This document shows positions 9,229 through 60,263 of a stretch of 64,000 bases of DNA, in pieces; the first letter of the stretch is position 1; the number at the start of each line of letters is the position of its first letter. The translations under genes and the position numbers were made by a program. The notes beneath the pieces were generated by a model. That model was not told the DNA's origin, made no database searches, and was given only the letters and a program-made list of their open reading frames with translations. This DNA is from Roseomonas sp. E05 (lineage in GTDB: Bacteria > Pseudomonadota > Alphaproteobacteria > Acetobacterales > Acetobacteraceae), in NCBI RefSeq assembly GCF_030063475.1, contig NZ_JASIRT010000012.1:62001-126000 (forward strand), given 5' to 3'.

Positions 9229-9270
9229 GCCGGGGGAAGGAATTCCCCCGGACCCCCATCTTTTTTCTTC
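9229..9270 (+). repeat. Family 1 palindromic repeat, arm 1
   Basis: Hairpin CCGGGGGAA-GGAA-TTCCCCCGG followed by ACCCCCATCTTTTTTCTTC, preceded by an A-run (AAAAAGG). It lies directly after the dctM stop, hairpin side towards the gene. No inverted partner follows. The A-run/hairpin/T-run layout resembles a bidirectional terminator. Confidence 0.8.
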
Positions 9271-9400
9271 GAGTGCGCTGCTCAGCCGCCAGGGCTCCCC
9301 TTTTTCCCGCACCCCGTCACAAGCCGATGGACTCCGCCGCCGAGTGGCGGCAGCGTGAAAGCGAAGCGCCGATCAAGGCGCCAAAAGGGAGGACAGGTTC

Positions 9401-10378
9401 ATGAAGCCTTGGACGAGGCGCGCCGTGGTGGCTGCCATGGGGGCTCTGCCGGCCATCCGGCCCGGCGCCGCTGCCGAAGCCGGAAACTGGCCCAGCGAGA
9501 CCATCCGGATCGTCGTGCCTTTCGCGCCCGGCGGCTCGACCGACGCCGCGGCCCGCCTGGTCGCGCCGGGGCTTCAGCAGCGCCTCGGGGTGCCCATCAT
9601 CGTCGAGAACCGCAGCGGCGCAGCCGGCAGCATCGGCGCGGATGTCGTGGCGAAGGCAAAGCCCGACGGGTACACGTGGCTGCTCACCTTCGACTCCCAC
9701 GCCCTGATGCCGATCCTGGTGCCGAGTCTGCCCTTCGATCTGGAGAAGGACCTGGACCCGGTGACGCAGATCGGCCGGGCGCCCTATGTCACGGCCTGCC
9801 AGCCCTCCAAGCCCTATCGCAGCATGGAGGATGTCTTCGCGGCCGCGCGCAAGGGGCCGGTCTCCTTCGGCTCGACGGGGAACGGCACGATCGGGCACCT
9901 GGTCATGCTGATGATGGCGCAGCGCAAGGACGTCGAGATCACCCACCTGCCGTATCGCAGCGGCGGCCTGGCGGTGAACGATGCCGTGGCCGGGCATGTG
10001 GACATGATGATCGGCAGCGCCGCCCTGCTGGCCTCCCAGATCTCGGGGGGCACGCTGCGGCCCCTGATGCAGTTCGGCAGCAAGCGCCTGCCGGCGCTGC
10101 CTGATGTGCCGACCGCCACGGAGTCCGGCTTCCCCGATCTGACCGCCGAGGCCTGGTGGGGCGTCTTCGCCCCGGCGGGCGTGCCGGCGCCGATCCTCGC
10201 CCGCTTCCAGGCCGCCGTGATCGACGCCTACCGCGAGCCCCGCATCGCCCGGCAGTTCACCGAGGTGAACCAGGCCGAGCTGGTGCTCGGCGACGCGCCG
10301 GCCCTGGCCAAGTTCGTGGAGAGCCAGATCCGCATCTGGGGCGAGGTGGCGCGCGCCAACCATGTCCGGCCGGATTGA
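9401..10378 (+). CDS. Bug/TctC-family periplasmic tripartite tricarboxylate-type binding protein
   Basis: A 325-residue periplasmic binding protein. The leader has Arg-Arg (TRRAVVAAMGAL) and an Ala-rich cleavage region. The mature start WPSETIRIVVPFAPGGSTD is the Bug family signature, and ENRSGAAGSIGADVVAKA plus GTGNGTIGHL are the usual ligand loops that bind a carboxylate through backbone amides. No TctA or TctB membrane gene is adjacent, as is usual for the many orphan Bug proteins of Burkholderia and Roseomonas relatives. The ligand is unknown. The gap before it (9271-9400) shows nothing beyond repeat arm 1. Confidence 0.9.
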   Translation: MKPWTRRAVVAAMGALPAIRPGAAAEAGNWPSETIRIVVPFAPGGSTDAAARLVAPGLQQRLGVPIIVENRSGAAGSIGADVVAKAKPDGYTWLLTFDSHALMPILVPSLPFDLEKDLDPVTQIGRAPYVTACQPSKPYRSMEDVFAAARKGPVSFGSTGNGTIGHLVMLMMAQRKDVEITHLPYRSGGLAVNDAVAGHVDMMIGSAALLASQISGGTLRPLMQFGSKRLPALPDVPTATESGFPDLTAEAWWGVFAPAGVPAPILARFQAAVIDAYREPRIARQFTEVNQAELVLGDAPALAKFVESQIRIWGEVARANHVRPD

Positions 10379-10480
10379 TGCCGCCTTCTTCGCGCGGCAC
10401 CACTGGCGAAGGCGAGCGGCCGGCAGGCGGCGGAACCGGGCGCCGGCCCGATCTCCAGGTTTCCGAAAAGGGAGTGCACC

Positions 10481-10852
10481 ATGAAGCAGGCTGACGAATT
10501 CCATAACCTCGATGATGCGGCCGGCGGCATCCTGCGCGAGCTCGCCCCTGGCCTGACCACGCGGATCTTCGCCGGCGAGCATGCCATGCTGTCCATCGTC
10601 ACCATCGCGCCCAATGCCGCGGGCGAGATGCATCACCATCCCGAGGAGCAATGGGGCGTCCTGCTGGAGGGGAGCGCCATCCGCATCCAGGGCGACGAGG
10701 AGATTCCCGTCCGCAAGGGCGATTTCTGGCGCACGCCGGGCGGGGTTCCGCACACCATGCGCGCCGGGCCGGAGGGCGCGCGGGTGCTCGACATCTTCAG
10801 CCCGCCGCGGCCGCAGTACCGCGTGGCCGGGAAGGGCTTCGGCACCACGTGA
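10481..10852 (+). CDS. Cupin domain protein
   Basis: A 123-residue single-domain cupin. The first metal motif is visible as EMHHHPEEQWGVLLEG and the second half has KGDFWRTPGGVPHTM, giving the His/His/Glu/His ligand set of the jelly-roll fold. Small cupins of this type may be dioxygenases, isomerases or sugar/acid binders, and nothing here decides between them. Start ATG follows AAAAGGGAG. It lies 100 bases after the Bug-type binding protein in the same direction and may be co-transcribed with it. Confidence 0.82.
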   Translation: MKQADEFHNLDDAAGGILRELAPGLTTRIFAGEHAMLSIVTIAPNAAGEMHHHPEEQWGVLLEGSAIRIQGDEEIPVRKGDFWRTPGGVPHTMRAGPEGARVLDIFSPPRPQYRVAGKGFGTT

Positions 10853-10924
10853 GATCGGATGACCCCCAGCCGCGCCTCCCGTGATGGGCGGGGTGGCGTA
10901 AACATGGCGCCTCGCGGCTGCTCC

Positions 10925-11035
10925 TCAGAGGGCCGCCGCGCCATCCGGGGGCGGCCTCAAGGAGGTCGAGCCTTTCCCGCCCAGCCAAGCGCAGAATAGG
11001 AACAGAAGACCGGCGGAAGCGAGGAGGAGAAGCAT
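10925..11035 (-). CDS. Possible 36-residue membrane peptide
   Basis: The frame reads MLLLLASAGLLFLFCAWLGG, then a short polar tail ending PDGAAAL. It would be a single-helix peptide. A weak purine-rich stretch (AGGGACAGAGG) precedes the ATG. Short hydrophobic frames arise by chance in GC-rich DNA, so this is only a candidate. Confidence 0.22.
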   Translation of the reverse strand: MLLLLASAGLLFLFCAWLGGKGSTSLRPPPDGAAAL

Positions 11036-11170
11036 GCCTCTGTCCCTGTGCCGCGGCGCTTCAGCCTGGAGTGCTGCCTTGCCGCCCTTCGGCGGCGGAA
11101 TGGCCAGCCCCCCGGCACCCGCAAGGTCCGGCACGGCGCCCGGCGGGAGGCCGGCCGGTCCGGGACGGGT

Positions 11171-11195
11171 TGGGGGGCAGTCCCCCGGACCCGCC
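11171..11195 (+). repeat. Degenerate family 2 repeat arm
   Basis: TGGGGGGCAGTCCCCCGG followed by ACCCGCC resembles the inner hairpin of the family 2 elements at 43111 and 46521 (CCGGGG...CCCCGG then ACCCCGCC). It sits at the 3' end of the FAH-family gene, the position favoured by these repeats. No paired arm was found. Confidence 0.45.
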
Positions 11196-11203
11196 CTGGC
11201 CTT

Positions 11204-11893
11204 TCACCCGGCGTAGGTGACGCGCACCTCGCCGACGCCCTCGCAGGTGCCGTGCAGGCTGTCGCCCGGCTTCACGGCGCTGACGCCGGCCGGGGTGCCG
11301 GTCATCAGCAGGTCGCCCGGCAGCAGTTCCACATAGCGCGAGAGATAGGCGATGCTCTCCGGCACCGACCAGATCATCTGGTTCATGTCGCCGGTCTGCT
11401 GCACCTTGCCGTTCACGCTGACCTCGATCTTGCCCTTGCCGGGATGGCCGATCCTGGACGCCGGGATGATGGCGCTGATCGGGCAGGACTGGTCGAAGCC
11501 CTTCGACAGCTCCCAGGGGCGGCCGAGCTTCTTGGCTTCCGCCTGGATGTCGCGCCGCGTCATGTCCAGACCGACGGCATAGCCATAGACGTGCGAGAGC
11601 GCGTCCTCCACGGCGATGTCCTTGCCGCCCTTGCCGATGGCGACGACCAGCTCGATCTCGTGGTGCAGGTCCTTGGTCTGCACGGGGAAGGGCAGGCTGC
11701 CGCCGCCCGGCACCACCGCCGTCGCCGGCTTGGCGAAGAAGAAGGGCGGCTCGCGGTCGGGGTCGTGGCCCATCTCGCGGGCGTGGTCGGCATAGTTGCG
11801 GCCGACGCACCAGATGCGGCGCACCGGGAAGACGGCGGTCTCGCCCTCGACCGGCACGGTGGCCGGCTGCGGGGCCTCGATGACGTACTGCAA
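11204..11893 (-). CDS. Fumarylacetoacetate hydrolase (FAH) family protein
   Basis: A 229-residue single-domain FAH fold protein. The start of the domain shows IWCVGRNYADHAREMG; the metal-binding acidic residues are in HHEIELVVAIGKGG and AVGLDMTRRDIQ, and LLPGDLLMTGTPAGVSAVKPGD is the C-terminal signature. Members include fumarylpyruvate hydrolase, acylpyruvases and oxaloacetate decarboxylases; the short length and sequence resemble acylpyruvate/fumarylpyruvate hydrolases (YcgM/NagK type). I set the start at TTG 11893 because GGGGAGGA lies seven bases upstream; the longer ATG frame adds a Pro/Arg-rich leader with no site. A sigma-70-like promoter lies upstream. Confidence 0.88.
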   Translation of the reverse strand: MQYVIEAPQPATVPVEGETAVFPVRRIWCVGRNYADHAREMGHDPDREPPFFFAKPATAVVPGGGSLPFPVQTKDLHHEIELVVAIGKGGKDIAVEDALSHVYGYAVGLDMTRRDIQAEAKKLGRPWELSKGFDQSCPISAIIPASRIGHPGKGKIEVSVNGKVQQTGDMNQMIWSVPESIAYLSRYVELLPGDLLMTGTPAGVSAVKPGDSLHGTCEGVGEVRVTYAG

Positions 11894-13452: not shown

Positions 13453-14191
13453 GCGCGACACCCCCGCCGCCGATCCCTGGGCGCCGCTGCGGCGGATGAC
13501 GCCGGCGCGCATCGGCCTCGGCCGCCGGGGTGACGCGCCGCCGCTGGAGGCTGTGCTCGACTTTCAACTCGCCCATGCACGGGCGCGCGACGCGGTCCAC
13601 GCGGCGCTCGACGTGGCCACGCTGGTCACCGCGCTGGAGGGGCGCCCGCATGTCGTCGTGCGCAGCCAGGCGCCGGAGCGCGGCACCTATCTCCGCCGGC
13701 CGGACCTTGGCCGGCGTCTCGATCCGGGGTGCCTCCGCGACCTGCCGCACGGCGCGTGGGACGCGGCCTTCGTCCTGGCGGACGGGCTTTCCGCCACGGC
13801 CGTGCAGCGGCACGCGCTTCCCTTGTTGCAGGCCACTCTCGCGCGGCTGCCGGGCTGGCGCATCGCGCCTGTCGTCATCGCCACCCAGGCGCGGGTGGCG
13901 CTGGGCGACGAGATCGGCGCTGCCCTCGGCGCGCGGCTCTGCGCCATGCTGATCGGCGAACGTCCCGGCCTTTCGGTGGCGGATAGCCTGGGCGTCTATC
14001 TCACCCATGCTCCGCAGCCGGGGCGGCGGGATTCGGAGCGCAACTGCATCTCCAACATCCATCAATCCGGCGGACTCTCCTATGAGGCCGCGGCCGACAA
14101 GCTGGCCTGGCTGATGGCCGAGGCGCTGCGTCTGAAGCTCACCGGGATCGGGTTGAAGGACGACCAGCAGGCGGCATTGCCTGGCACCTGA
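13442..14191 (+). CDS. eutC: Ethanolamine ammonia-lyase small subunit
   Basis: A 249-residue EutC subunit that forms the B12-binding interface with EutB. The family motif TPARIGLGRRGDAPPLEAVLDFQLAHARARDAVH is at the N-terminus, followed by RSQAPERGTYLRRPDLGRRL and the C-terminal SERNCISNIHQSGGLSYEAAADKL with its conserved Cys-Ile-Ser-Asn-Ile. Its ATG lies inside the end of eutB, giving coupled translation. It is followed within four bases by a paired family 1 repeat that separates it from convergent zwf. Confidence 0.96.
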   Translation: MPPERDTPAADPWAPLRRMTPARIGLGRRGDAPPLEAVLDFQLAHARARDAVHAALDVATLVTALEGRPHVVVRSQAPERGTYLRRPDLGRRLDPGCLRDLPHGAWDAAFVLADGLSATAVQRHALPLLQATLARLPGWRIAPVVIATQARVALGDEIGAALGARLCAMLIGERPGLSVADSLGVYLTHAPQPGRRDSERNCISNIHQSGGLSYEAAADKLAWLMAEALRLKLTGIGLKDDQQAALPGT

Positions 14192-14194
14192 AAG

Positions 14195-14314
14195 GCTGGG
14201 GGAATGAATTCCCCCAGACCCCCATCTTTTTCTTCGGGTTTCCCGTGCGGGCCGCCAGCGCGGCGCCAAACTGACAAAAAGAAGATGGGGGTCCGGGGGA
14301 ATTCCTTCCCCCGG
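14195..14314. repeat. Family 1 repeat, complete inverted pair (arms 2 and 3)
   Basis: Arm 2 (14195-14235) is GGGGGAATGAATTCCCCC plus AGACCCCCATCTTTTTCTTC. Arm 3 (14272-14314) is its inverse, GACAAAAAGAAGATGGGGG plus the hairpin, ending CCGGAC before a run of eight T. The 36-base spacer includes GCCGCCAGCGCGGCGCC next to AAACTGAC. Each arm faces the 3' end of its own gene (eutC, zwf). The T-run after arm 3 would make a good terminator for rightward transcripts. Confidence 0.85.
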
Positions 14315-14322
14315 ACTTTTTT

Positions 14323-15801: not shown

Positions 15802-16069
15802 TGCTGCCGCTCCTCGGGATCAGACGGAGGGGCAAGGTAGCGTGCTGCGGCGCAAGGCTCCACGCGCCATCTGCGTCATTCCGCTCCATCCGACAAAATG
15901 ACGATAGAAGCTGCCCCTGACTGCTCCACTCGTGCGCGAGTTTCGGTGCGCCGGGCGGATATCGCCCGCTTTACGCCCGGCATGCCGCAAAAATGGGCAC
16001 GCTCATCAATCCGCCCATAACCGCGAAGAAAAAGATGGGGGTCTGGGGGAATTCCTTCCCCCAGCCTTC
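15802..16069. other. Intergenic region upstream of zwf
   Basis: Between zwf (leftward start) and the oppF-like gene (leftward end). It presumably holds the zwf promoter, though no clear -35/-10 pair stood out. Its right end holds family 1 repeat arm 4. Confidence 0.5.
16025..16064 (-). repeat. Family 1 palindromic repeat, arm 4 (single)
   Basis: GAAGAAAAAGATGGGGGTC then GGGGGAATTCCTTCCCCC and CAG, ending six bases before the stop of the leftward ABC ATPase gene. Read on the minus strand the hairpin comes first, then the pyrimidine tract. No partner arm was found to its left. Confidence 0.8.
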
Positions 16070-17091
<1,022 letters not shown>

Positions 17092-21507: not shown

Positions 21508-21638
21508 GCGCAATCTGCTCCCGGTTCAGGCAAGTGCCGTGCGGACAGGCGAAGCGGCGTTATCAGCGGGGCCGCCCTGCGGTGATGTCGGGGGAGCTTC
21601 AAGCAAGCACCGGGCCAGAAACGGTCGAGGGCTGGAAC

Positions 21639-21802
21639 CAGGGGAGAATGAATTCTCCCCCGGACCCCCTCTTCTTCTTTCTGTCAGTTCTGCCGCGTGG
21701 GTGGCACGCGCCCGCGCCGAGGCTGAAACAGCCTCAGTGGCAGTTTGGCGTTGAAGATCCGAAGAAAAAAGAAGGGGGTTCGGGGGAATTCATTCCCCCG
21801 AC
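21639..21802. repeat. Family 1 repeat, inverted pair (arms 5 and 6)
   Basis: Arm 5 (21639-21689): GGGGAGAATGAATTCTCCCC, CGGACCCCCTCTTCTTC and CTGTCAGTT. Arm 6 (21761-21802): GAAGAAAAAAGAAGGGGG, then the GGGGGAATTCATTCCCCC hairpin and ACCTTTTC. The spacer contains a further palindrome GAGGCTGAAACAGCCTC. Arm 6 abuts the M28 peptidase stop. The pair fills much of the 299-base gap 21508-21806, whose right part has no gene and whose left part must hold the ABC operon promoter. Confidence 0.85.
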
Positions 21803-21806
21803 CTTT

Positions 21807-23564
21807 TCAAAGCCCCACGCGTGTCGCGGCGATCAGCGCCGTGCAGTCTTCCAGCGCGTCCGCCACGCTGTTGCGGGCACGGCGCAACTCCACTTCCAGC
21901 AGGCGCGCCTCCACGCCTTCCGCCCTGGCGTAACGCGGGACGTCGAACAGGCCGGGGATCATGCTGCCCTGCGGCGTGTAGCCGTACATGTCCTGGCCAT
22001 AGGGGCCGCAGGCGGTGCTGGCGAGCGGGATCAGCCGGCGCGAAAGGGCGCGGAAGCAGGCGTTCAGCCGCGCGGCCGGGGCGGGGTCCAGGCCGGGCTC
22101 CGCGGCGTAGCGGGCGCGCCAGGCGGCGGCGAGGCGCTCCAGCGCGGCGGCTTCGGCTTCCAGTGCGCGGGCGCGGTCCAGCACGCTTTCCAGCCCGAGA
22201 CCGGGTGCGAGCGGCGCCAGTTCTGCCAGCCGTGCGACGAACTGCGCCGCCACCTCGGTATAGTCGAAGGGCAGCAGGGCCTCGGTGCAGAGCGCCCAGA
22301 GATAGCCGGCATAGACGCGCAGATGCGCGGGCATGCTGGCCCAGTCCACCTTGTCCAGCGTGTTCTCCAGCGAGTGGTGCCACCAGCCGATGGAGGCGCC
22401 CGCCGTCGCGGCCAGCTCGGCCTGGGTATAGCCGCCCTGGCCGCCGAACATCGGAATGCCGAGGCCGAAGAAGGAGGCGTCGCCCATTTTTCCGGCACGA
22501 TGCCAACGGCGCGGCCAGTCCGGCAGCATCCGCGCCTCGACGCCCTCATGGAAGCGGCGCAACTCGGCATTGGAGGAGGCGGACCATTCGGAGACGCCCA
22601 GGCAGGCCGGCTGGTCGATCTGCAGATAGGCCACGGCATGCGCGCGCAGCCGGTCCCAGTGCCGGTCGGCGAAGCGGGAGGAGCCGATCATCGTGCCCGT
22701 CTCGTGCCCCGCCCAGAAGCCGCAGACCAGCCCGCGGCGCAGCTTCTCCCGGTGCCGCGCGAAGACGCGCGCGAGTTCCAGCACGCAGGCATTGCCGGTG
22801 GCATTGTCCGTCGGCTGCGGGCCGAACCAGGAGTCCTGGTGGCCGCCGAGCAGCACGAAATCCTCGCTGCCCGGCACGGCCAGCTCACCCACGGTGACAT
22901 GCACCGGCGCCCAGCGATTCTCGGCGCGCGCCACCAGCCGCACCTGCACCGGCCCCTCCGCCAGCATGCCGCGCAGCATCAGCCCGGTGCTGCGGGCGAT
23001 GCCGATGCAGGGCAGGGTGGCCATCTCCTCCGCCATGCCGCGCCGCGTCGGGTTGCCCCAGGCGGGCTTCACCGAGCCGAAGGGAATGGCGGTGCTCTCC
23101 GGCGGCCCCCAGTTGAACATGATGCAGCCGAGGGCGCCCTGCAGCGCCGCGATGCGCTGCTTCTCGTGCCGCGCCGGCGAGTAGGAGAGTTCGGAAAGCG
23201 TGATGCAGCCGCGCGCGTCGCGCCCCTCGTAGTCGGCGAAGCCGCCGCCGCCGACATCGATCAGCGTGGCGGTGATCCCCTCCGGCGGCGTGGAGACGCT
23301 GTGGCCGAGCGTGAAGGCCTCGATGGCGATCTCGCGCGGCGCCAGCACGTTCAGCGCGCCCGGCTCCGGAAAGCTGACGAGCCCTTCGCCATCCTCGATC
23401 CAGGCTTCGAGCCCGGCCTCGCGCAGCGCCGCCGCGCTGTACTCCGCCATGCGCGCGCCATTGGGCGATCCGGCGAGGCGGGAGGGGATCTCGTGGGCGA
23501 TGTGCTCGACATGCGCGCGCACCGCATCGGTTGACAAGTCGGACAGGATCAGGTCGAGCGACAT
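21807..23564 (-). CDS. M28 family zinc metallopeptidase
   Basis: A 585-residue peptidase with a PA-domain-like insert and a catalytic M28 domain. Zinc-ligand motifs are visible as LGGHQDSWFGPQPTDNATGN (His and bridging Asp), FWAGHETGTMIGSSRF (catalytic Glu-Thr region), YLQIDQPACLG (Asp) and WWHHSLENTLDKVD (distal His). The architecture resembles glutamate carboxypeptidase II/aminopeptidase relatives, including a C-terminal dimerisation-like helical domain. There is no signal peptide from the chosen ATG (MSLDLILSDLSTDAV), so it is probably cytoplasmic. It sits between a peptide importer and a divergently read D-aminopeptidase-like gene, consistent with degrading imported peptides. Confidence 0.85.
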   Translation of the reverse strand: MSLDLILSDLSTDAVRAHVEHIAHEIPSRLAGSPNGARMAEYSAAALREAGLEAWIEDGEGLVSFPEPGALNVLAPREIAIEAFTLGHSVSTPPEGITATLIDVGGGGFADYEGRDARGCITLSELSYSPARHEKQRIAALQGALGCIMFNWGPPESTAIPFGSVKPAWGNPTRRGMAEEMATLPCIGIARSTGLMLRGMLAEGPVQVRLVARAENRWAPVHVTVGELAVPGSEDFVLLGGHQDSWFGPQPTDNATGNACVLELARVFARHREKLRRGLVCGFWAGHETGTMIGSSRFADRHWDRLRAHAVAYLQIDQPACLGVSEWSASSNAELRRFHEGVEARMLPDWPRRWHRAGKMGDASFFGLGIPMFGGQGGYTQAELAATAGASIGWWHHSLENTLDKVDWASMPAHLRVYAGYLWALCTEALLPFDYTEVAAQFVARLAELAPLAPGLGLESVLDRARALEAEAAALERLAAAWRARYAAEPGLDPAPAARLNACFRALSRRLIPLASTACGPYGQDMYGYTPQGSMIPGLFDVPRYARAEGVEARLLEVELRRARNSVADALEDCTALIAATRVGL

Positions 23565-23608: not shown

Positions 23609-25102
23609 ATGTCTCTCTCCTGGCAGCAGGCGGCGTCCTGCGCGGCCGAACTGGTCTCCGGCTGGGCGGCGGACGAGCCGGGCGGCATCGTGCTCGGCTT
23701 CGACGCCTCCGGCCCGCGCTTCGTCGAGGCGCGTGGCCTCGCCAGCATCGAGCACGACCTGCCTTTCGGCATCGCGACGCCGACGCGCCTCGCCTCCATC
23801 ACCAAGCACCTCTTCTGCGCCGTCGCGCTGCGCGAGGGGATGGACATGGCGGCGCCGCTCGGCGTGCTGGTGCCGGGCCTGCCGGAGGCGGTGGCTGCCG
23901 TGCCGCTCGGTCGCGCCCTGGGCATGACGGGCGGCCTGCCGGACCTGGCGGAGAGCTTCAGTCTGCTCGGCCTGCCTGCCAGCGCGAATTTCAGCCGTGC
24001 CACCCTGCTGGAGATGGCGCGCGCCCTGCCCGGGCTGAACTTTGCGCCCGGCAGCAGCATCTCCTACAGCAACACCGGCTACCGCCTCGCCGAGTCGGCG
24101 CTTTCCGCCCCCTTCGGCACCCTGCTGGAGCGGCATTTCCCCGGCCTCGGCCTCTTCTACCCGGAGGACGAGACAACCCCGGTGCCGAACCTTGCCACCG
24201 GCTACTGGCGGGATGCCGGGCGCGGCTGGCGGCGCGGCCGCTACGGGCTGAACTACTCGGCCTCCGGCGGACTCGCCTGCTCGGCCGAGGCGCTGATGCG
24301 CTGGTCGCTCCGCCTGATGGCCGGGGAGGGCGGCACGGCCGGGCTGTGGGACGCGCTCACCCGCTTCGGCACGCTGCTGGACGGGCGCGAGACCGGCTAT
24401 GGCCTCGGCCTCTCCCGCGTGCCGCTGGAGGGGCCGGTGCTCTGGGGTCATGGCGGCTCGCTGCCGGGCTACAAGAACCACCTGCTGCTGGCGCCGGAAC
24501 TGGGCACCGGCGTCATCGTCCTGAGCAACCGCGAGGAAACCGGCGCCTACCGCATGTCCCTCGCGGTCATGGCGGCGCTGACCGGCCTCGCCCTGCCGCC
24601 GCCCGGCCGCCTGCCCGCAGGTCTTTTCGCGCAGGCGGATGGCCCGCTCTGGGTGGACTCCACCGGCGATTCCCTTTTCCTGCTCGGCGCGCAGGAGGCG
24701 CTCTCCGAAGGTCCCGACGGGCTGGTGCATGGCCTCCAGGCGCATCTGGCCTTCGCGTTGCGGGCGGCGCCGGACGGCGCGCTGGAGGGCAGCCTCGGCC
24801 ATCAGCCTTGCCGCCTGCTGCCGGTGCCGGAGGATGCCGCGCTCGATCCGCGCCTGCTCGGGGACTGGGTGGGCGAGGGGTTGGGCTGCGAAGCGCGCCT
24901 CACCATCGCCGAGGATGGGCGCATCCGCCTGCCCGGCCAGCCCCGGCAATGGGCGGCGCTGCGGCCTCTCGGCCAGGGCAAGGCGCTGGCGGAACGCGCC
25001 TCGCCGCCCTCGCGCAGCCGCTTCGCGCTCTGGCTGGCGGCGCCGGACGCATTGCGCCTCGTCTCCCAACGCAGCCGGATGCTGACCTTCCGGCGCGGGT
25101 GA
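23609..25102 (+). CDS. S12 serine hydrolase, D-aminopeptidase-like
   Basis: A 497-residue penicillin-binding-protein-fold hydrolase. The nucleophile motif is SITKHLF (Ser-x-x-Lys) near residue 70, the Tyr-x-Asn motif is in SISYSNTGYRLAE, and the third element is HGGSLPGYKNH. After the catalytic domain (to about residue 330) come roughly 160 residues that look like the two small beta-barrel domains of Ochrobactrum D-aminopeptidase. Length also fits that enzyme (520) better than plain beta-lactamases. No signal peptide is visible. The ATG at 23609 lies 44 bases from the divergent M28 start, so the two probably share a regulatory region. A substrate with an N-terminal D-residue is inference. Confidence 0.8.
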   Translation: MSLSWQQAASCAAELVSGWAADEPGGIVLGFDASGPRFVEARGLASIEHDLPFGIATPTRLASITKHLFCAVALREGMDMAAPLGVLVPGLPEAVAAVPLGRALGMTGGLPDLAESFSLLGLPASANFSRATLLEMARALPGLNFAPGSSISYSNTGYRLAESALSAPFGTLLERHFPGLGLFYPEDETTPVPNLATGYWRDAGRGWRRGRYGLNYSASGGLACSAEALMRWSLRLMAGEGGTAGLWDALTRFGTLLDGRETGYGLGLSRVPLEGPVLWGHGGSLPGYKNHLLLAPELGTGVIVLSNREETGAYRMSLAVMAALTGLALPPPGRLPAGLFAQADGPLWVDSTGDSLFLLGAQEALSEGPDGLVHGLQAHLAFALRAAPDGALEGSLGHQPCRLLPVPEDAALDPRLLGDWVGEGLGCEARLTIAEDGRIRLPGQPRQWAALRPLGQGKALAERASPPSRSRFALWLAAPDALRLVSQRSRMLTFRRG

Positions 25103-25106
25103 ACAA

Positions 25107-25283
25107 GATCGGGGGAAAGAATTCCCCCGGTCAAACCTATAGGTTTGACCCTTCTTTCTTTTGCCAGTTTGCCGGTCACAGTCGCCGGGGCTGCTTCAGG
25201 CCCGGCGTGGGCGCGTGCCGCCAGCGCGGCAAAACTGATAGAAAGAAGAAGTGGGGGTCCGGGGGAGAATTCATTCTCCCCCG
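25107..25283. repeat. Family 1 repeat, inverted pair (arms 7 and 8), arm 7 carrying an extra palindrome
   Basis: Arm 7 (25107-25165) has hairpin CGGGGGAAAGAATTCCCCCG, but where other arms read GACCCCC it has a 22-base perfect palindrome (25129-25150, left half GGTCAAACCTA), then CTTCTTTCTTTTG and CCAGTTTGCCGG. Arm 8 (25231-25283) is AAACTGATAGAAAGAAGAAG, TGGGGGTCC and a GGGGGAGAATTCATTCTCCC hairpin. The spacer holds CCGCCAGCGCGGC, also found in the 14195 pair. The pair follows the D-aminopeptidase stop. Confidence 0.85.
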
Positions 25284-25299
25284 GTGCTGCCTCCCGCCC

Positions 25300-26754: not shown

Positions 26755-28794
<2,040 letters not shown>

Positions 28795-28796
28795 AA

Positions 28797-28847
28797 AAGT
28801 CCGGGGGAAGGAATTCCCCCGGCCCCCATCTTCTTTTTGTCAGTTCA
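28797..28847 (+). repeat. Family 1 palindromic repeat, arm 9 (single)
   Basis: AAAAAAGT, hairpin CCGGGGGAA-GGAA-TTCCCCCGG, CCCCCATCTTCTTTTTGTCAG. It fills the whole gap between convergent nadE and the DUF2254 gene, and its last bases overlap the DUF2254 stop codon. Confidence 0.82.
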
Positions 28848-30092
28848 GGAGAGGTCCTGCCGCTCCGTGAGCGCCAGCTCGCGCAGGATCTGGCGCTCCG
28901 AAGACATGCCGAGCGCCTGCTCCGCACGCTCCAGCGCCTCCTGCGAATGCCGCCGCGCGATGAACCGGAAGCCGCCAAGCGGCGCCAGCATCCGGAGCGT
29001 CTTCTGCAGCCGGATACCGACCTCCAGCATCCCCGCCCCGTCGCGGGCGATGGGATGGAAGAAGTCGTCGAACATCTCCTCGGCCGAGAGGCCGGGCGCA
29101 TGCACATGCGGCAATGGGTTCTCCGACTGGTGCTGCGCCTGCGCCTCGGCCCATTCGGCAAGCAGCTTGCCGCCGCCGGTGAGCACGCCGATCGCTGTGC
29201 CCGGATCATTCACCGCCGACGAAAGAGCGCGGGAGGCGATTTCCGACAGCACGATCAGCCCGAAGCGCGGGTCCTGGTCGTAGGAGCGGCTGCTGCCGAG
29301 CGTGAAGGCGGCGCGCAGGCGGGCGGCCATCTCGTCATCGCAGGGGCGCGCCAGCCAGAGCAGGGGGCGGTGCGGGTGCAGATAGGCGCCGGGGAGCACC
29401 AGCAGGTGGACCGCTTGGCCCATCTCCTCGCCCAGGGTGGAGAGCCGGCCGAGATCGGCATGCTGCAGGTAGCCCCGCTCCTCCGGAAAGATCTGCGGAG
29501 CGCCCTCCGGCTCCGGCACGGGCGGGCGGGCGCCCAGATAGGGCCGCTCAACCCACTGCTGCAGTGCCTCGCGCGTGGCCGCTTCGACGCGGGCGGTCGT
29601 TTCCTCGACACGCCCGAGTCCGGAGAGGCGCTCGATCCAGCGGAGCAGGGTGACGACGATCCAGATGATCACCAGGATGGTGACGACGAACAGGATGACC
29701 CGCCCGTTCTCGCCGTAGATGCCCGTGCTGAGCGCGACGATGCCGGCGACGCTGAACAGGAAGCTGCCGAGGAAGGTGGCGATGGCGTTCTGCGCCGTCC
29801 GGTCCTCGATCACCAGGCGGGTGGCGCGCGGGGTGGCGTTGCTGGTGGCAGCAGCATAGGCCGAGACCATGGTGGTGAGGGAGAAGGTGGTCACCGCCAG
29901 CATGCTGGAAGCCAGGATGCCGAGGATGTTGTCCACCGCCTGGGCGCCGATGGTGACGGTGATCTTGTAGGGGATGAAGGGTTCGGCGACCGAGGCCACC
30001 AGGGCGGTGGCCACCGCGAGCAGCGTGAACAGCGCGGCGCGGAACCACAGGCGATGTGTCAGCCGCCGCCACAGCCATTGCCAGCGACTCAT
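28845..30092 (-). CDS. DUF2254 family inner-membrane protein
   Basis: A 415-residue protein with four helices in its first 150 residues (ALFTLLAVATALVASV, NILGILASSMLAVTTFSL, FLGSFLFSVAGIVALST, VILFVVTILVIIWIVV) and a long soluble C-terminal half. The segment SMLAVTTFSLTTMVSAYAAA and the later DEMAARLRAAFTLGSSRSYDQDPRFGLIVLSEIASRALSSAVNDPGTA are DUF2254 hallmarks. The family's role is not established. Its stop codon lies within repeat arm 9. Confidence 0.85.
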   Translation of the reverse strand: MSRWQWLWRRLTHRLWFRAALFTLLAVATALVASVAEPFIPYKITVTIGAQAVDNILGILASSMLAVTTFSLTTMVSAYAAATSNATPRATRLVIEDRTAQNAIATFLGSFLFSVAGIVALSTGIYGENGRVILFVVTILVIIWIVVTLLRWIERLSGLGRVEETTARVEAATREALQQWVERPYLGARPPVPEPEGAPQIFPEERGYLQHADLGRLSTLGEEMGQAVHLLVLPGAYLHPHRPLLWLARPCDDEMAARLRAAFTLGSSRSYDQDPRFGLIVLSEIASRALSSAVNDPGTAIGVLTGGGKLLAEWAEAQAQHQSENPLPHVHAPGLSAEEMFDDFFHPIARDGAGMLEVGIRLQKTLRMLAPLGGFRFIARRHSQEALERAEQALGMSSERQILRELALTERQDLS

Positions 30093-30158
30093 GCAGGCTT
30101 TTCCTCCGTTGCGTGCCGGCTGAACCCGGCGCGGTGCGGAGAAGTTGCCCTGCCCAAG

Positions 30159-30200
30159 GCTGGGGGAATGAATTCCCCCAGACTCCCTTCTTTTTTCTTC
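30159..30200 (+). repeat. Family 1 palindromic repeat, arm 10
   Basis: CTGGGGGAATGAATTCCCCC, AGACTCCCTTC and TTTTTTCTTCAGG, lying between the trpA stop (30235) and the DUF2254 start (30092), both leftward. It points away from the usual hairpin-towards-gene orientation for trpA; the degenerate CTCGGGGGAACTCCGG at about 30215 may be the decayed partner arm. Confidence 0.78.
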
Positions 30201-30234
30201 AGGTTCCCCGCGGGGCTCGGGGGAACTCCGGCCT

Positions 30235-32279: not shown

Positions 32280-32356
32280 GCGTCCCTCCAAGCTGCGCCG
32301 AGTGTTAGCGCGCCCTGCCATATGGGGATAGAGGCGCCATTGGGGGGAGGGGAAAG

Positions 32357-32482
32357 GTCGGGGGAATGAATTCCCCCGAACCCCCTTCTTTCTTTTGTCG
32401 ATTCTGGCGTGTGCTGGCCACCCGCGCGGGAGACCCGAAGAAAAAAGAAGGGGGTCTGGGGGAATTCATTCCCCCGGCCTTT
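32357..32482. repeat. Family 1 repeat, inverted pair (arms 11 and 12)
   Basis: Arm 11 (32357-32402): GTCGGGGGAATGAATTCCCC, CGAACCCCCTTCTTTCTTTT and GTCGATT. Arm 12 (32437-32482): GAAGAAAAAAGAAGGGGG, TCT and the GGGGGAATTCATTCCCCC hairpin, then GGCCTTTC. The spacer is about 34 bases. Arm 12 abuts the trpF stop, and the pair interrupts what is otherwise a trpF-trpB-trpA run. Confidence 0.85.
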
Positions 32483-33151
32483 CTAATCCTGCTCCGCGTG
32501 CGCGGCCGCGACGAAGGCGGCGATCAGCACCGGATCCTTCACGCCGCGCATGCGCTCGACGCCGGAGGAGACATCCACCGCCGGCGCGCCCGTGGCACGG
32601 ATGGCAGAGGCCACGTTGACCGGCGTCAGCCCGCCCGCCAGCATCCAGGGGCGGGGGATCGGGTGGCCGGCCAGCAGGGACCAGTCGAAGCTGGCGGCAT
32701 TGCCGCCCGGCAGGGTGGCGCCGCGCGGCGGCTTGGCGTCCAGCAGGAAGCGGTCCACCGACGGCGCATAGGCCTCCAGCAGCCCGAGGTCCTCCGGCGT
32801 GGCGATGCCCAGCGCCTTCATCACCGGCAGGCCGAAGCGCGCGCGGATGGCGGCGCAGCGCTCCGGGCTCTCGGTGCCGTGCAGTTGCAGCAGGCTCAGG
32901 GGCGCGGCCTCCAGCACCGCACCGATCTCGGCATCCGTCGCGTCCACGAACAGGCCGGCGCAGAGCGGGCGGCGCCCGGTGCTGCCGCGCGCCGCCAACT
33001 CGCCGGCCTGCTCGGGCGTCACCGCACGCGGGGAGGGGGGATAGAAGACGAAGCCCACCCAGTCGGCCCCGGCGCGGCAGGCCGCGTCATAGGCCGCCGC
33101 GTCGTTGATACCGCAGATCTTGACCTGCACCTTTGGGAGGGAGCCGGACAT
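32483..33151 (-). CDS. trpF: Phosphoribosylanthranilate isomerase
   Basis: A 222-residue single-domain TIM barrel for the third step of tryptophan synthesis. The catalytic Cys is in VQVKICGINDAAAY (residues 8-21), the general-acid Asp in RFLLDAKPP, and LAGGLTPVNVASAI forms the phosphate site. Its ATG shares one base with the pyrF stop (TGATG). Confidence 0.95.
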   Translation of the reverse strand: MSGSLPKVQVKICGINDAAAYDAACRAGADWVGFVFYPPSPRAVTPEQAGELAARGSTGRRPLCAGLFVDATDAEIGAVLEAAPLSLLQLHGTESPERCAAIRARFGLPVMKALGIATPEDLGLLEAYAPSVDRFLLDAKPPRGATLPGGNAASFDWSLLAGHPIPRPWMLAGGLTPVNVASAIRATGAPAVDVSSGVERMRGVKDPVLIAAFVAAAHAEQD

Positions 33152-37763: not shown

Positions 37764-37820
37764 GAAAAACTGACAGAAAAGAAGAAGAGGGGGTTCCGGG
37801 GGAGAATTCATTCTCCCCCG
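37764..37820 (-). repeat. Family 1 palindromic repeat, arm 13 (single)
   Basis: GGAAAAACTGACAGAAAAGA, AGAAGAGGGGGTTCC and a GGGGGAGAATTCATTCTCCC hairpin. It retains the AAACTGACA motif seen in arms 3, 5, 8 and 15. The hairpin side faces the cmk stop. No partner was found. Confidence 0.82.
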
Positions 37821-37845
37821 GCTCTGCCCTCGCCGGGCGTGCCGT

Positions 37846-40293: not shown

Positions 40294-40342
40294 GCCGCCC
40301 CGGGCGCCGCCGCAGGCGCGCCCGGAAACGGCTGGGCGAGCG

Positions 40343-40376
40343 GGCCGGGGGAAGCGATTCTCCCGGCCTTTTCTTA
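40343..40376 (+). terminator. Terminator resembling a truncated family 1 repeat head
   Basis: GGCCGGGGGAA-GCGA-TTCTCCCGGCC: an 11-bp stem with one G-U pair, immediately followed by TTTTCTT. It ends the FYDLN-type gene. The head is like family 1 but the CCCCCATC tail is missing; it abuts the stop of the convergent dehydrogenase gene. Confidence 0.72.
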
Positions 40377-43079: not shown

Positions 43080-43253
43080 CCAAGGAGGCGCTGCCTCCTT
43101 GGATCCTCCGCCGGGGGGACAGTGTCCCCCCGGACCCCGCCAGGAACGGCCGCTGCGTCGCCTCGCGCCGGGGGGCAAGGAACGAATGCCGGGGTCCGGG
43201 GTGGTTCAACCACCCCGGCGGGAGGGTCCAGGGAGGGCGGCGCCCTCCCTGGC
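43080..43253. repeat. Family 2 repeat, inverted pair of double hairpins
   Basis: Left arm: hairpin A CCAAGGAGGC-gct-GCCTCCTTGG, link ATCCTCCG, hairpin B CCGGGGGGAC-agt-GTCCCCCCGG, then ACCCCGCC and a conserved stretch up to GCGCCGGGGGGC (about 43185). Right arm inverted: hairpin B' CCGGGGTGGT-tca-ACCACCCCGG (43196-43218), link GGAGGGT, hairpin A' CCAGGGAGGGC-ggc-GCCCTCCCTGG (43229-43253). The stretch CCCCGCCAGGAACGGCC recurs, inverted, in the element at 46495-46744. With the small ORF at 43258 it accounts for the gap 43041-43425. Confidence 0.8.
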
Positions 43254-46486: not shown

Positions 46487-46494
46487 AAGCGGAG

Positions 46495-46744
46495 CAGGGG
46501 GCGCTGCCCCCTGATCCCCGCCGGGGTGGCAGTGCCACCCCGGACCCCGCCTTGCGTTTTTTGCTCTCAGGCTTCCAGGCGCGCGCTTGCCGGATGGCAG
46601 GAACATTCAAACGGCAGCGCATACGGCACCGGCAGTCGCCGGAGGGCCATGCCCTCCGGCGCGAAGCGATGCAGTGGCCGTTGCTGGCGGGGTCCGGGGG
46701 GATACTATCCCCCCGGCGGGGGCCCAGGGGGCAGCGCCCCCTGG
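46495..46744. repeat. Family 2 repeat, inverted pair of double hairpins
   Basis: Left arm: CAGGGGGC-GCT-GCCCCCTG (46495-46513), link, CCGGGGTGGC-agt-GCCACCCCGG (46521-46543), ACCCCGCC. Right arm, inverted: CGCCGGAGGGC-cat-GCCCTCCGGCG (46637-46661), a conserved link with ACTGCATCGCTTCGCG in reverse, CCGGGGGGAT-act-ATCCCCCCGG (46694-46716) and CCAGGGGGC-agc-GCCCCCTGG (46724-46744). It occupies nearly the whole 46487-46748 gap between the convergent SMP-30 and lipoprotein genes. Confidence 0.82.
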
Positions 46745-46748
46745 CCTT

Positions 46749-47048
46749 TCACCGCGGTGGCCCCGGCGATTCGACGCCGCCCGGCGAGGCGAGCCCGTTG
46801 CGACGCAGGCAGTCGCGATAGGCGCGCAGCTCCGCCACCCGCATGTCGTGCATCACCCGGTCCCGGTTGTTGGGGTTGTTCATGTTCAGCTGCCGGGCGA
46901 AGTCGTCCACGGACTGGGCCTTCCGCGCCTCATCGCGGCAGGCCGCCTGCACCGGCGAGAGCGGCTCGTCGGTCGGGATGGGGCTGGGCGTCCTGGCGCA
47001 GGCGGCGAGCAGCGGCAGCAGGGCCAGGAGAGGGAGGGTGCGCATCAT
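46749..47048 (-). CDS. Small lipoprotein
   Basis: A 99-residue protein with a lipoprotein signal: MMRTLPLLALLPLLAACART, lipobox LAAC at residues 14-17. The mature part (SPVQAACRDEARKAQSVDDFARQLNMNNPNNRDRVMHDMRVAELRAYRDCLRRNG) contains two further Cys that might form a disulfide and a conserved phospholipid-binding-like Asn-rich stretch. Family not recognised. The first ATG overlaps the nudC stop by four bases; the second Met is an equal candidate. Confidence 0.72.
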   Translation of the reverse strand: MMRTLPLLALLPLLAACARTPSPIPTDEPLSPVQAACRDEARKAQSVDDFARQLNMNNPNNRDRVMHDMRVAELRAYRDCLRRNGLASPGGVESPGPPR

Positions 47049-48065: not shown

Positions 48066-48176
48066 TGGGCGGTGGAAGGTCGGCGGCGGACAGGCGCCTC
48101 GCCAACCCGGTCAGGTCCGGAAGGAAGCAGCCGCAACGAGTTTCCGTCTGGGTCGTTCCGCCGGTCTTCCACCGGA
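48066..48176 (+). ncRNA. ffs: Signal recognition particle RNA (4.5S-type)
   Basis: The universally conserved SRP core is present: CGCCAACCCGGTCAGGTCCG followed by GAAGGAAGCAGCCGCAACGAG. The ends pair: CGGTGGAAG (48070-48078) with CTTCCACCG (48166-48174), closing a roughly 105-nt hairpin of the small bacterial type. Location directly upstream of dnaX is the standard alphaproteobacterial position. Exact ends are estimated from the closing stem. Confidence 0.93.
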
Positions 48177-58661: not shown

Positions 58662-59231
58662 ATGACCACGACTGAGCATGAACTCCTCGTCGAGCGCACC
58701 GAGGCGCTGGATGAGGCGGAACTCGCCGATCTCTGCGAGGCGACGGACGCGGCGATCATCGAGGGCGGCGGCTTCGGCTGGGTCGAGCCGCAAGGCCGCG
58801 AGGCGCTGGCGCGGCATTTCCGCGGCGTGCTGCTGGTGCCGGCGATCGAGCTGTTCATCGCGCGGCTGGACGGCGTGCCGGTCGGCTCGGCGCAGCTCAT
58901 CCGCCCGCCGCGCAACAACGAGGCGCAGGCCTTCAGCGCCCAGCTCACCCATGCCTATGTGGCGCCCTATGCGCGGGGCCATGGCCTGGCGCGGCTGATG
59001 GTGCGCCGGGTGGAGGAGCGCGCCGCCGCGCTGGGCCACCGCGTGCTGAACCTGGACGTGCGGGAGACGCAGACCACCGCCATCGCGCTGTTCGAGGGCA
59101 TGGGCTACACCCGCTGGGGCACGCATCCGGCCTATGCGCGGGTGCGCGGCCGCACAGTGGCCGGCCACTACTACCACAAGCTGCTGGAGCCGCCGCATGG
59201 CCGCGCGCTCGACCTGCGCGCCGGCGCCTGA
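58662..59231 (+). CDS. GNAT family N-acetyltransferase
   Basis: A 189-residue protein with the GNAT core: substrate strands [19 protein letters not shown]-like segment, acetyl-CoA motif [20 protein letters not shown] and [26 protein letters not shown] at the end. Its ATG starts on the base after the hisH stop, so it is in the his operon. The substrate is unknown; such genes within his operons may be moonlighting or acquired. Confidence 0.83.
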
Positions 59232-59276
59232 CTGACAGAAAAAAGACGGGGGTTCGGGGGAATTCCGTCCCCCGAC
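59231..59276 (-). repeat. Family 1 palindromic repeat, arm 15 (single)
   Basis: ACTGACAGAAAAAAGACGGG, GGTT and a CGGGGGAATTCCGTCCCCCG hairpin, followed by ACCTTTTTC. It lies between the GNAT and hisA genes, both rightward, with the tail against the GNAT stop. Confidence 0.8.
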
Positions 59277-59302
59277 CTTTTTCTCCGACCGGACCTCGCC
59301 CC

Positions 59303-60022
59303 ATGCCCTTCACCCTCTACCCCGCCATCGACCTGAAAGCCGGCCAGGTGGTGCGCCTCAAGCGCGGCGACATGGCGCAGGCCACCATCTATGGCGACCC
59401 GGCCACCCAGGCCCGCGCCTTCGACGAATCGGGCTTCGAGTGGCTGCATGTGGTGGACCTGGACGGCGCCTTTGCCGGCCGCCCCGCCAATGCGGAAGCC
59501 GTCGCCGCCATCCTCGCCGCCACCACCCGCCCGGTGCAACTCGGCGGCGGCATCCGCGACATGGCGACGGTGGAGGCCTGGCTCGCGCGCGGCATCGCCC
59601 GCGTGATCCTCGGCTCGGCGGCGGTGAAGGACCCGGATTTCGCCCGCGCCGCCTGCCGCGCCTTCCCGGGCAAGGTGGCCGTCGGCATCGACGCCCGGGA
59701 GGGCATGGTGGCCACCGAGGGCTGGGCCGAAGTCAGCAGCGTCTCCGCCCTCGACCTGGCGCTGGCCTTCGAGGATGCCGGGGCGGCGGCCATCATCCAC
59801 ACCGACATCGAGCGGGACGGGATGCTGGGCGGCGTCAATGTCGAGGCCACGGCAGAGCTGGCCCGGCGCCTCGCTACCCCGGTCATCGCCTCGGGTGGCG
59901 TCGCGGGCGTGGCCGACATCGCCGCGCTGAAGGCCACCGGCAGCGTGGCGGGCACCATCATCGGGCGCGCGCTCTATGACGGGCGCCTGACGCCGGACGA
60001 GGCGCTGGCGGCGAGCCGGTAG
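59303..60022 (+). CDS. hisA: 1-(5-phosphoribosyl)-5-[(5-phosphoribosylamino)methylideneamino]imidazole-4-carboxamide isomerase
   Basis: A 239-residue TIM barrel of the histidine pathway. Catalytic Asp at residue 8 ([19 protein letters not shown]), the second Asp in [14 protein letters not shown], and the phosphate loops LGGGIRD and [14 protein letters not shown] are intact. Normally hisF would follow, but the next gene is an inverted nitroreductase after two repeat arms. Confidence 0.96.
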
Positions 60023-60028
60023 GAAAAA

Positions 60029-60263
60029 GGCCGGGGGAAGGAATTCCCCCAGGCCCCCATCTTTTTCTTCGAGTTGGCGGCTCCGGACCTTTTCTCCATC
60101 CGGCCGCGGGGCAGGGGGCGGAGGTTGCCTCCTGGCGCAGCCCATGGCGCGCGCTCCGGCTCGATGGTGGAGACCATCCCGAACGGCTGACGGACCACCG
60201 CGCTGCTACCGGCGCGCAAACCGGCAGAAAAAAGATGGGGGTTCGGGGGAATTCCTTCCCCCG
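60029..60263. repeat. Family 1 repeat, wide inverted pair (arms 16 and 17)
   Basis: Arm 16 (60029-60069): AAAAAGG, CCGGGGGAA-GGAA-TTCCCCC, AGGCCCCCATCTTTTTCTTC. Arm 17 (60221-60263): CCGGCAGAAAAAAGATGGGG, GTT and CGGGGGAATTCCTTCCCCCG. The spacer is about 150 bases, the longest seen, with no gene. Each arm faces the 3' end of its neighbour (hisA, nitroreductase), filling the 60023-60284 gap. Confidence 0.82.

What the first reader, a model, noticed from the sequence alone, without database searches (positions are those of the whole stretch)
9229..60263. Family 1: dispersed intergenic palindrome-plus-pyrimidine-tract repeats
At least 16 arms share GGGGGAA(N4)TTCCCCC, a GG(A/T)CCCCC(A/T)TC link, a T/C tract, and often TGTCAGTTT then GC-rich sequence. 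They occur at 9229, 14195/14272, 16025, 21639/21761, 25107/25231, 28797, 30159, 32357/32437, 37764, 59231, 60029/60221, with a mini copy at 40343. None interrupts a gene. Five sites are tail-to-tail inverted pairs; most arms face a gene's 3' end. Many heads have an A-run outside and a T-run inside, so they could be bidirectional terminators as well as BIME/MITE-like elements. The hairpin loops vary while stems stay perfect, which implies selection on structure.
Basis: partly seen in the sequence, partly recalled or inferred. Interest (0 to 1): 0.8.

Follow-up and report, generated by a model that had tools for sequence, protein, structure and literature searches.

The report
Dispersed terminator-like repeats beside stop codons
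A bacterial genome carries roughly 300 copies of a short hairpin sequence, often as mirror-image pairs placed just after the ends of genes, which looks like a spreading family of ready-made transcription stop signals with no recognisable enzyme to move it.

Summary
The window has 16 arms, a mini hairpin and 5 tail-to-tail pairs; shuffles give 0.36 head matches. The genome has 260-316 arms by two patterns; 16 congeners range from 0 to 165. In 464 kb I found 74 heads forming 27 pairs; 24 of 27 pairs align nearly end to end with another pair. In the main class, 44 of 50 arms facing a gene 3' end start 5-16 nt after the stop codon. Outer stem pairs show compensatory changes. In that class 52 of 62 arms have a T-rich stretch just after the hairpin on the gene-facing side; the minor class has none (0 of 8). 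Congeners show derived insertions. A pair also lies between major head and tail genes of a prophage, and at the matching place in 6 IMG/VR contigs. No full RAYT was found in the genus and GTAG/CGTC tags are nearly absent. Best reading: a BIME/REPIN-like inverted-dimer repeat whose main-class heads act as intrinsic terminators, spread by an unidentified route. Termination is inferred, not shown.

The parts
9222..9285 (+). single arm, head 9232-9249, 10 nt after the DctM-family gene stop; a TctC gene follows where sister G012 has the other half of a pair
   Evidence: sister G012 has a full long-type pair right after the same stop
14188..14251 (+). left arm of convergent pair between eutC and G6PD genes
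   Evidence: sister G012 has one simple hairpin here
14259..14322 (-). right arm of the same pair
16009..16072 (-). single arm, 7 nt after an ABC-transporter gene stop
21632..21695 (+). left arm, GGGAG class without outward T-run
21746..21809 (-). right arm, GGGGG class, 7 nt after the M28 peptidase gene stop
25101..25164 (+). left arm with the link replaced by palindrome GGTCAAACCTATAGGTTTGACC; left out of the 70-arm alignment
25227..25290 (-). right arm, GGGAG class
28793..28856 (+). single arm filling the 50-bp convergent gap after the NAD synthase gene
   Evidence: diverged ortholog in G012
30152..30215 (+). arm between the trpA 3' end and the DUF2254 gene; right partner apparently decayed, the reverse in G012
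32350..32413 (+). left arm of pair between trpB-like and trpF genes
   Evidence: pair shared with G012
32422..32485 (-). right arm of the same pair, 7 nt after the trpF stop
37764..37827 (-). single arm, GGGAG class, 28 nt after the cytidylate kinase gene stop
40340..40370 (.). mini copy: simple terminator-like hairpin, not a full arm (no link or pyrimidine tract)
59220..59283 (-). single arm inserted between a GNAT gene and hisA; empty in sister G012
60023..60086 (+). left arm, 10 nt after the hisA stop
60209..60272 (-). right arm, 22 nt after the nitroreductase-family gene stop

Best explanation
This is a family of non-coding dispersed elements. Each arm reads, from the gene outward: A-run, variable stem bases, GGGGGAANGAATTCCCCC with matching stem bases, C5, [A/T]TC, pyrimidine tract, then often TG[T/C]CAGTTT. 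Two arms often join tail to tail into an inverted dimer, typically about 131 bp, with a GC-rich core. Shown: dispersal, dimer homology, derived insertions, placement 5-16 nt after stop codons, and compensatory stem changes. Inferred: RNA polymerase that has crossed the element (from the convergent gene, or from the same gene through the far arm) meets a hairpin followed closely by a T-rich stretch and terminates just before the opposite stop codon, so that a dimer of two main-class arms works as a bidirectional terminator. Insertions survive mainly at gene 3' ends because they do no harm there or help. Also inferred: the elements spread as whole dimers or single arms by a machinery other than RAYT, sometimes on phages.
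For: Copies: 282 exact heads in the genome; 260 arms by a 31-mer with up to 3 mismatches, reversed control 0; 316 by a 25-mer with up to 2, control 0 in this genome. Dimers: 27 pairs among 74 heads, no other order within 260 bp; 24 of 27 align over at least 85% of the shorter length with another pair, at 69-88% identity. A 141-bp match at 89% lies on another contig of G012. Placement: 25 of 74 convergent gaps against 20 of 369 other gaps carry a head (Fisher p 2e-10); 44 of 50 main-class arms facing a 3' end lie 5-16 nt from the stop; the 9 tandem pairs sit 7-22 nt from the upstream stop (p 0.005 against uniform). Hairpin: 68 both-side-changed cells against 18 shuffled; covariation 0.231 against 0.078 shuffled and at most 0.068 slid. 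T-rich stretch: 52 of 62 main-class arms have at least 4 T in nt 4-12 outward; as a rough base line, 14 of 337 arm-less genes have at least 4 A in the 9 nt after the stop. Insertion. Phage position.
Against: No transcript data. All 8 GGGAG-class arms lack the outward T-rich stretch, so part of the family is not a standard terminator. The inward T-tract starts about 8 nt after the hairpin, which is not canonical. Two of the five covariation measures do not exceed shuffles (pairs with a change on both sides, further pair types). Some arms lie between genes that may be co-transcribed (trpF-trpB; GNAT-hisA), where a strong terminator would be costly. Arm-less convergent gaps manage with other hairpins or none. 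No mobilising enzyme and no target duplication was identified.
Confidence: 0.66

Rival explanations
1. Selfish REPIN-type repeats moved by a RAYT-like transposase that is lost or too diverged to recognise. 3' placement reflects only where insertions are tolerated, and termination is incidental.
For: Same architecture and same gene-end placement as described REP families (PMC3733652 section 15). REP singlets as decaying remnants of REPINs (PMC8049555 passage) resemble some single arms here. Derived insertions.
Against: No RAYT model match in 17 of 17 genus genomes, while the model rings in 6 of 14 control genomes (over its cut-off in 1); no Y1_Tnp match in this genome, only a 36-position fragment in G005; GTAG or CGTC near the head in only 1 and 3 of 70 arms. 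The outward T-rich stretch and stem compensation are more than a transposition signal needs.
Confidence: 0.15
2. Ordinary intrinsic terminators, independently arising or spread by gene conversion between near-identical palindromes, with pairs built by recombination rather than transposition.
For: Simple hairpins with similar heads occur at orthologous gaps in G012 (the G6PD gap; 251435; 308257). Arm class is switched at one end of an orthologous pair at 237385. Palindromic heads would promote recombination.
Against: Whole pairs, including link, tract and core, align across separate loci. No head at GNAT-hisA in 11 of 11 further congeners that keep the neighbours, nor at 246542/246637 in 10 of 10. 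Zero arms in G008 against hundreds elsewhere.
Confidence: 0.12
3. 3'-UTR elements that act on RNA after transcription: mRNA 3'-end protection or ribosome stalling just after the stop codon, as reported for E. coli REPs.
For: Heads begin within the stretch covered by a terminating ribosome (5-16 nt; ribosome footprint recalled). Stable hairpins. PMC8049555 cites work on REP effects on neighbouring genes by transcription termination or mRNA half-life, Liang et al. 2015 among it (passage); the 15-nt rule itself is recalled and my search did not find that paper.
Against: Does not explain the outward T-rich stretch or the inverted pairing. The sense hairpin would often be covered by the ribosome.
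Confidence: 0.12
4. MITEs of a DDE-type insertion sequence whose ends match the arms.
For: Long inverted ends, a common dimer length of about 131 bp, derived insertions.
Against: No target duplication seen at GNAT-hisA (read by eye). Among consecutive arms in C1:1-400 kb, the window and 160 kb of G012, the only tail-to-tail arms 0.26-5 kb apart enclose a TctC gene, not a transposase. The outermost bases vary widely.
Confidence: 0.1

Closest known systems
REP / BIME / REPIN repeats (GTAG and CGTC super-families)
   Same: Short high-copy palindromes, inverted dimers, intergenic, often less than 20 bp from the 3' end of flanking ORFs; REP ends may supply a stop codon (PMC3733652 section 15). Transcription termination has already been reported for REPs (PMC8049555 passage).
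   Different: GTAG/CGTC tag nearly absent (1 and 3 of 70 arms); no full RAYT in the genus; main-class heads carry an outward T-rich stretch like intrinsic terminators. PMC3733652 states CGTC repeats are missing in Acetobacteraceae (passage).
Bidirectional Rho-independent terminators, including those built from DNA uptake sequences
   Same: GC hairpin flanked by A-run and T-run between convergent genes; a genome-wide repeated word inside terminators (PMC1852404 passages).
   Different: Here the repeat extends 50-60 bp per arm and forms a dimer of about 131 bp; the repeated unit includes link, pyrimidine tract and core; whole units show presence/absence between species.
MITEs
   Same: Small non-coding inverted-repeat elements with presence/absence polymorphism (general features recalled).
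   Different: No target duplication or parent insertion sequence identified here.
REPs as listed by RepRanger
   Same: Computational palindrome families; PMC12306157 names a REP-rich alphaproteobacterium, Lichenicola cladoniae (passage; that it is in Acetobacteraceae is recalled).
   Different: RepRanger classes palindromes with T-rich tails as terminators, so elements of this kind, being both, could be split between classes (inference).

Membership tests
REP/REPIN (RAYT-linked) | High-copy intergenic palindrome | tested here: met
   260-316 arms genome-wide; 72 of 74 sampled heads outside predicted ORFs
REP/REPIN (RAYT-linked) | Inverted dimers with a spacer | tested here: met
   27 pairs, no other order within 260 bp; in two pairs the link is altered in one arm and orientation was read from the loop
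REP/REPIN (RAYT-linked) | GTAG or CGTC tag beside the stem | tested here: not met
   1 of 70 (GTAG) and 3 of 70 (CGTC) arms within 12 nt
REP/REPIN (RAYT-linked) | RAYT transposase in the lineage | tested here: not met
   0 of 17 genus genomes with NF047646; PF01797 absent in G000, a 36-position fragment in G005 only among 17
Intrinsic terminator | GC-rich hairpin supported by covariation | tested here: met
   (3 of 5 measures above shuffles)
Intrinsic terminator | T-rich stretch soon 3' of the hairpin | tested here: met
   Outward in 52 of 62 GGGGG-class arms; not met in the GGGAG class, 0 of 8
Intrinsic terminator | Stops transcription | not testable with these tools
   needs Term-seq or a reporter
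MITE | Terminal inverted repeats and insertion polymorphism | tested here: met
MITE | Target-site duplication | tested here: inconclusive
   None seen by eye at GNAT-hisA; other junctions too diverged
MITE | Parent element with the same ends | tested here: inconclusive
   None between consecutive arms in the sampled stretches; the whole genome was not scanned for it
Rfam families | Match to a known RNA family | tested here: not met
   Only small SRP RNA reaches its gathering score in the window
DNA uptake sequence | Promotes DNA uptake | not tested
   needs transformation assays

The most novel reading that the evidence does not exclude
A mobile terminator module: a non-autonomous inverted dimer that inserts as a unit at gene 3' ends, takes over or supplies termination there, is moved by an as yet unknown non-RAYT machinery, and is carried between hosts by phages that use a copy between their capsid and tail genes.
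Probability: 0.3. Interest if true: 0.75.

Novelty: new variant of a known kind. Interest (0 to 1): 0.5.

Why it matters
REPs have been reported to terminate transcription before, but here the repeated unit itself carries the full anatomy of an intrinsic terminator, with clear derived insertions and a sister species holding empty sites. That makes it possible to ask whether repeats spread because they terminate transcription, and what moves REP-like dimers when no RAYT is found. The zero-copy congener G008 and this genome with about 260 copies are a natural comparison. If termination is real, the family is also a source of compact terminators for high-GC alphaproteobacteria.

Tried and rejected
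RAYT link: two models, negative but for one fragment. Rfam: no family at gathering score. Head as a target-site duplication of a palindromic terminator: rejected because heads in a pair are inverted, with the asymmetric loop NGAA on one strand and TTCN on the other, and differ in outer pairs. Arms as ends of a gene-carrying transposon: the only distant tail-to-tail arms found (C1 76575/77857) enclose a TctC gene, and a TctC gene follows the 9232 arm; two cases, not pursued. Pairing between the loop base and the base after C5: the commonest combinations (loop G with A, 29 of 70; loop T with T, 12 of 70) are not complementary, so I take them as linkage. The covariance-model genome search scored at most 91 candidates per genome and was not used for copy numbers. 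Literature: Roseomonas plus 'repetitive extragenic palindromic', 0 papers; Roseomonas plus inverted repeat, intergenic and terminator, 0 papers; in the broader searches no listed title or shown abstract start describes this family, and the longer lists were cut at 10-20 rows. Opened: PMC12306157, PMC8049555 and PMC1852404 (passages), PMC3733652 (passages and section 15). First gene caller was discarded because it picked shadow ORFs; a retrained one was used.
Full report
1. Observation. The head GGGGGAANNNNTTCCCCC, allowing 2 mismatches, occurs 21 times in the window against 0.36 expected in dinucleotide shuffles; 4 of those 21 belong to a different palindrome family. The window contains 16 arms in 5 tail-to-tail pairs and 6 singles, plus the mini hairpin at 40347, which lacks link and tract and is better called a simple terminator-like hairpin. 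In the whole 5.73-Mb genome there are 282 exact heads, 260 arms by a stricter 31-base pattern with a reversed-pattern control of 0, and 316 by a 25-base pattern, control 0 in this genome.

2. Anatomy. I studied 464 kb (400 kb of contig C1 and the window). It has 74 heads: 27 tail-to-tail pairs, no other order within 260 bp, and 20 singles, the mini hairpin among them. Two pairs (window 25111/25263 and C1 364003/364115) have a palindrome in place of one link; their orientation was read from the loop. Of the 74, 70 had a recognisable link and were aligned; the 4 left out are window 25111, window 40347, C1 364115 and C1 392104. The consensus from the gene outward is A-run, two or three variable stem bases, GGGGG-AA-NGAA-TT-CCCCC, matching stem bases, C5, A/T-TC, pyrimidine tract; TG[T/C]CAG follows in 26 of 70 and TTCG[A/G] in 22 of 70. 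Whole pairs are homologous units: 24 of 27 align over at least 85% of the shorter length with another pair (69-88% identity), and a 141-bp match at 89% lies on another contig of sister genome G012. Two arm classes exist: GGGGG (62 arms) and GGGAG (8 arms). The second has no outward T-rich stretch (0 of 8 against 52 of 62), and the 6 of 8 that face a 3' end lie 13-59 nt from the stop.

3. Structure. On the 70-arm alignment the 10-pair hairpin has 89.3% paired cells, 68 cells with both sides changed (shuffle mean 18) and covariation 0.231 (shuffle 0.078; slid versions at most 0.068). The two pairs just outside the G5/C5 stem carry 25 both-side changes each. One inner pair changes G-C to A-U in 8 arms, which may be a single inherited event. 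The pair furthest out (columns 8-31) is unpaired in 48 of 68. The count of pairs with changes on both sides (4 against 3.7 shuffled) and of further pair types (10 against 11.8) do not exceed shuffles, so the support rests on paired cells, changed cells and covariation. Congeneric arms show further stem versions, for example CCAGGGG...CCCCTGG in G010 and G011 and GGAGGGAG...CTCCCTCC in G006.

4. Placement. With a retrained gene caller (I had no external annotation of this genome), 25 of 74 convergent gaps, 19 of 295 tandem and 1 of 74 divergent gaps carry a head; convergent against rest gives p 2e-10. These are lower bounds: one 'arm-less' convergent gap (C1 251424) in fact holds a pair with two mismatches per head. 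Nine of 17 convergent gaps with two heads are 131-141 bp long, that is, the dimer nearly fills the gap. Of 50 main-class arms whose outer end faces a 3' end, 44 start 5-16 nt after the stop and 47 within 22 nt; two of the other three are the ORF-overlapping heads below. In the 9 tandem pairs the near head is 7-22 nt from the upstream stop and the far head 26-182 nt from the downstream start (combined p 0.005). Two of 74 heads overlap predicted ORFs: in one the loop TGA is the stop codon, and in the other the start is doubtful. An independently annotated Pseudoroseomonas cervicalis plasmid shows the same: one arm fills the 50-bp convergent gap between two annotated genes.

5. History. Sister G012 (mostly 83-94% nucleotide identity in long matches) shows many stages: empty site at 59256; one simple hairpin at the G6PD gap; shared pair at 32360/32458; diverged single arm at 28803; reciprocal decay at 30162; an arm of the other class right after the same stop at 9232; arm class switched at one end at 237385. 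Of 12 C1 pairs between 171 and 330 kb, 11 could be mapped to G012: 6 have two head matches there, 3 one and 2 none, weak matches of up to 2 mismatches included. Outgroups set direction. GNAT and hisA are neighbours in 11 of 15 further congeners, and none of those 11 gaps has a head even at 3 mismatches. Against a simple picture, G010 and G011, in which GNAT was not found in the stretch held, do have an arm upstream of hisA, and three congeners (G005, G009, G014) hold a different T-rich palindrome in the gap. At 246542/246637 the gap is 59-122 bp without heads in the 10 congeners that keep the neighbours, 205 bp with a pair here, and 123 bp with a partial hairpin in G012; 4 of 15 lacked the neighbours in the stretch held. 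At 251435, G008 has a 21-bp gap. At 240602, 3 of 7 comparable congeners also hold a pair. Many other sites could not be compared because neighbours were not found together. Copy number in 16 congeners runs from 0 (G008) to 165. In a family-wide draw 34 of 299 genomes and 15 of 102 genera, our own included, match the 25-base pattern, many with one to a few copies; one reversed-control match occurred in all 299. Two genomes of one other genus have 90 and 103. In six short stretches from each of two other genera, G043 and G027, heads mostly have a C-rich link and T-tract, and one G027 pair has only 64 bp from head to head.

6. Phage copies. A pattern scan of IMG/VR found 6 contigs. All 6 carry a pair with edges alignable to a C1 prophage site lying between a gene matching major head protein families and one matching tail protein families. 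Mean pairwise identity across the 7 sequences is 95% and 100% in the heads, 45% in the core and 60-74% in the outer flanks. Since the contigs were found by an exact arm, head conservation is partly built in; in three of them only one arm of the pair matched the search, yet the stem of the other head is intact. The head and tail gene identity was tested on the prophage only. A terminator after the major capsid gene is familiar from T7 (recalled). This supports a function and a possible carrier.

7. Mechanism. Reading outward toward the adjacent gene, the hairpin is followed closely by a T-rich stretch; reading away from the gene, the T-tract starts about 8 nt later, after C5-[A/T]TC. Folding agrees with a stable hairpin in both directions, although single-arm z-scores are modest (-0.6 to -3.4), and the full pair folds far better than shuffles (z -7.6 and -8.2), as any long inverted repeat would. 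So for a convergent pair of main-class arms each transcript should end at the far arm, just before the opposing stop codon, which would keep antisense transcription out of the opposite gene. This step is inferred. Against it stand the GGGAG arms and copies inside possible operons (trpF-trpB, GNAT-hisA). How the element moves is unknown: the RAYT model found nothing in 17 of 17 genus genomes, Y1_Tnp only a fragment in G005, and in the stretches scanned the only widely spaced tail-to-tail arms enclose a TctC gene.

8. Known relatives. Architecture and placement match described REP dimers: PMC3733652 reports most convergent REPs within 20 bp of both 3' ends and REP ends supplying stop codons (section 15), and PMC8049555 cites REPs terminating transcription (passage). 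The tags defining both REP super-families are nearly absent (1 and 3 of 70), and PMC3733652 says CGTC repeats are missing from Acetobacteraceae (passage). RepRanger separates REPs from terminators by T-rich tails (passage), so this family would fall between the two classes. I file it as a variant that works like a BIME and, probably, like an intrinsic terminator, not as a member of the RAYT-linked REP families. Named relatives and equal contig lengths put the window's genome in or near Pseudoroseomonas; this is an inference.

Noticed in passing
window 43060-43190 and 46480-46760; C1 gaps near 94828, 160705, 303233: A second palindrome family (CCGGGGTGG..CCACCCCGG with ACCCCGCC, and CCAGGGGGC..GCCCCCTGG or near versions), also in convergent gaps.
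   Followed up: no
C1 16144 and 44827 (L001, L003): A third repeat with TTCCGATGATGCCATCGGAA-like hairpin and AGAGCATTTTCCGTTC-like edge, in convergent gaps.
   Followed up: no
window 25129-25150; C1 364093-364114; L158 and L161: In some arms the C5 link is replaced by a perfect short palindrome (GGTCAAACCTATAGGTTTGACC here, ATCGACGTATACGTCGAT in another genus), as if a tiny palindrome had entered the same position twice.
   Followed up: partly
window 9232-11204 and C1 76575-77857: TctC receptor genes lie beside or between arms; the window one is absent in sister G012, where a complete pair occupies the place.
   Followed up: partly
C1 about 255-264 kb (L013/L014) and L191-L196: Prophage structural genes with a pair between major head and tail protein genes; a pair with alignable edges in 6 IMG/VR contigs.
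   Followed up: yes
L165, L167, L168 (G005, G009, G014) upstream of hisA: A different T-rich palindrome, CTTCTTTTTCTTCAGAAAAAGAAG, occupies the GNAT-hisA gap in three congeners.
   Followed up: no
L197 2413-2419; window 59229-59238; window 28838-28847: In some single arms the inner end (CTGACAG or its complement) overlaps or abuts the stop codon of the neighbouring gene, so one arm fills the whole gap.
   Followed up: no
L140 near 8920: A run of more than 40 G in G012, possibly an assembly artefact.
   Followed up: no
window 48078-48169: Small SRP RNA, the only Rfam match in the window.
   Followed up: no
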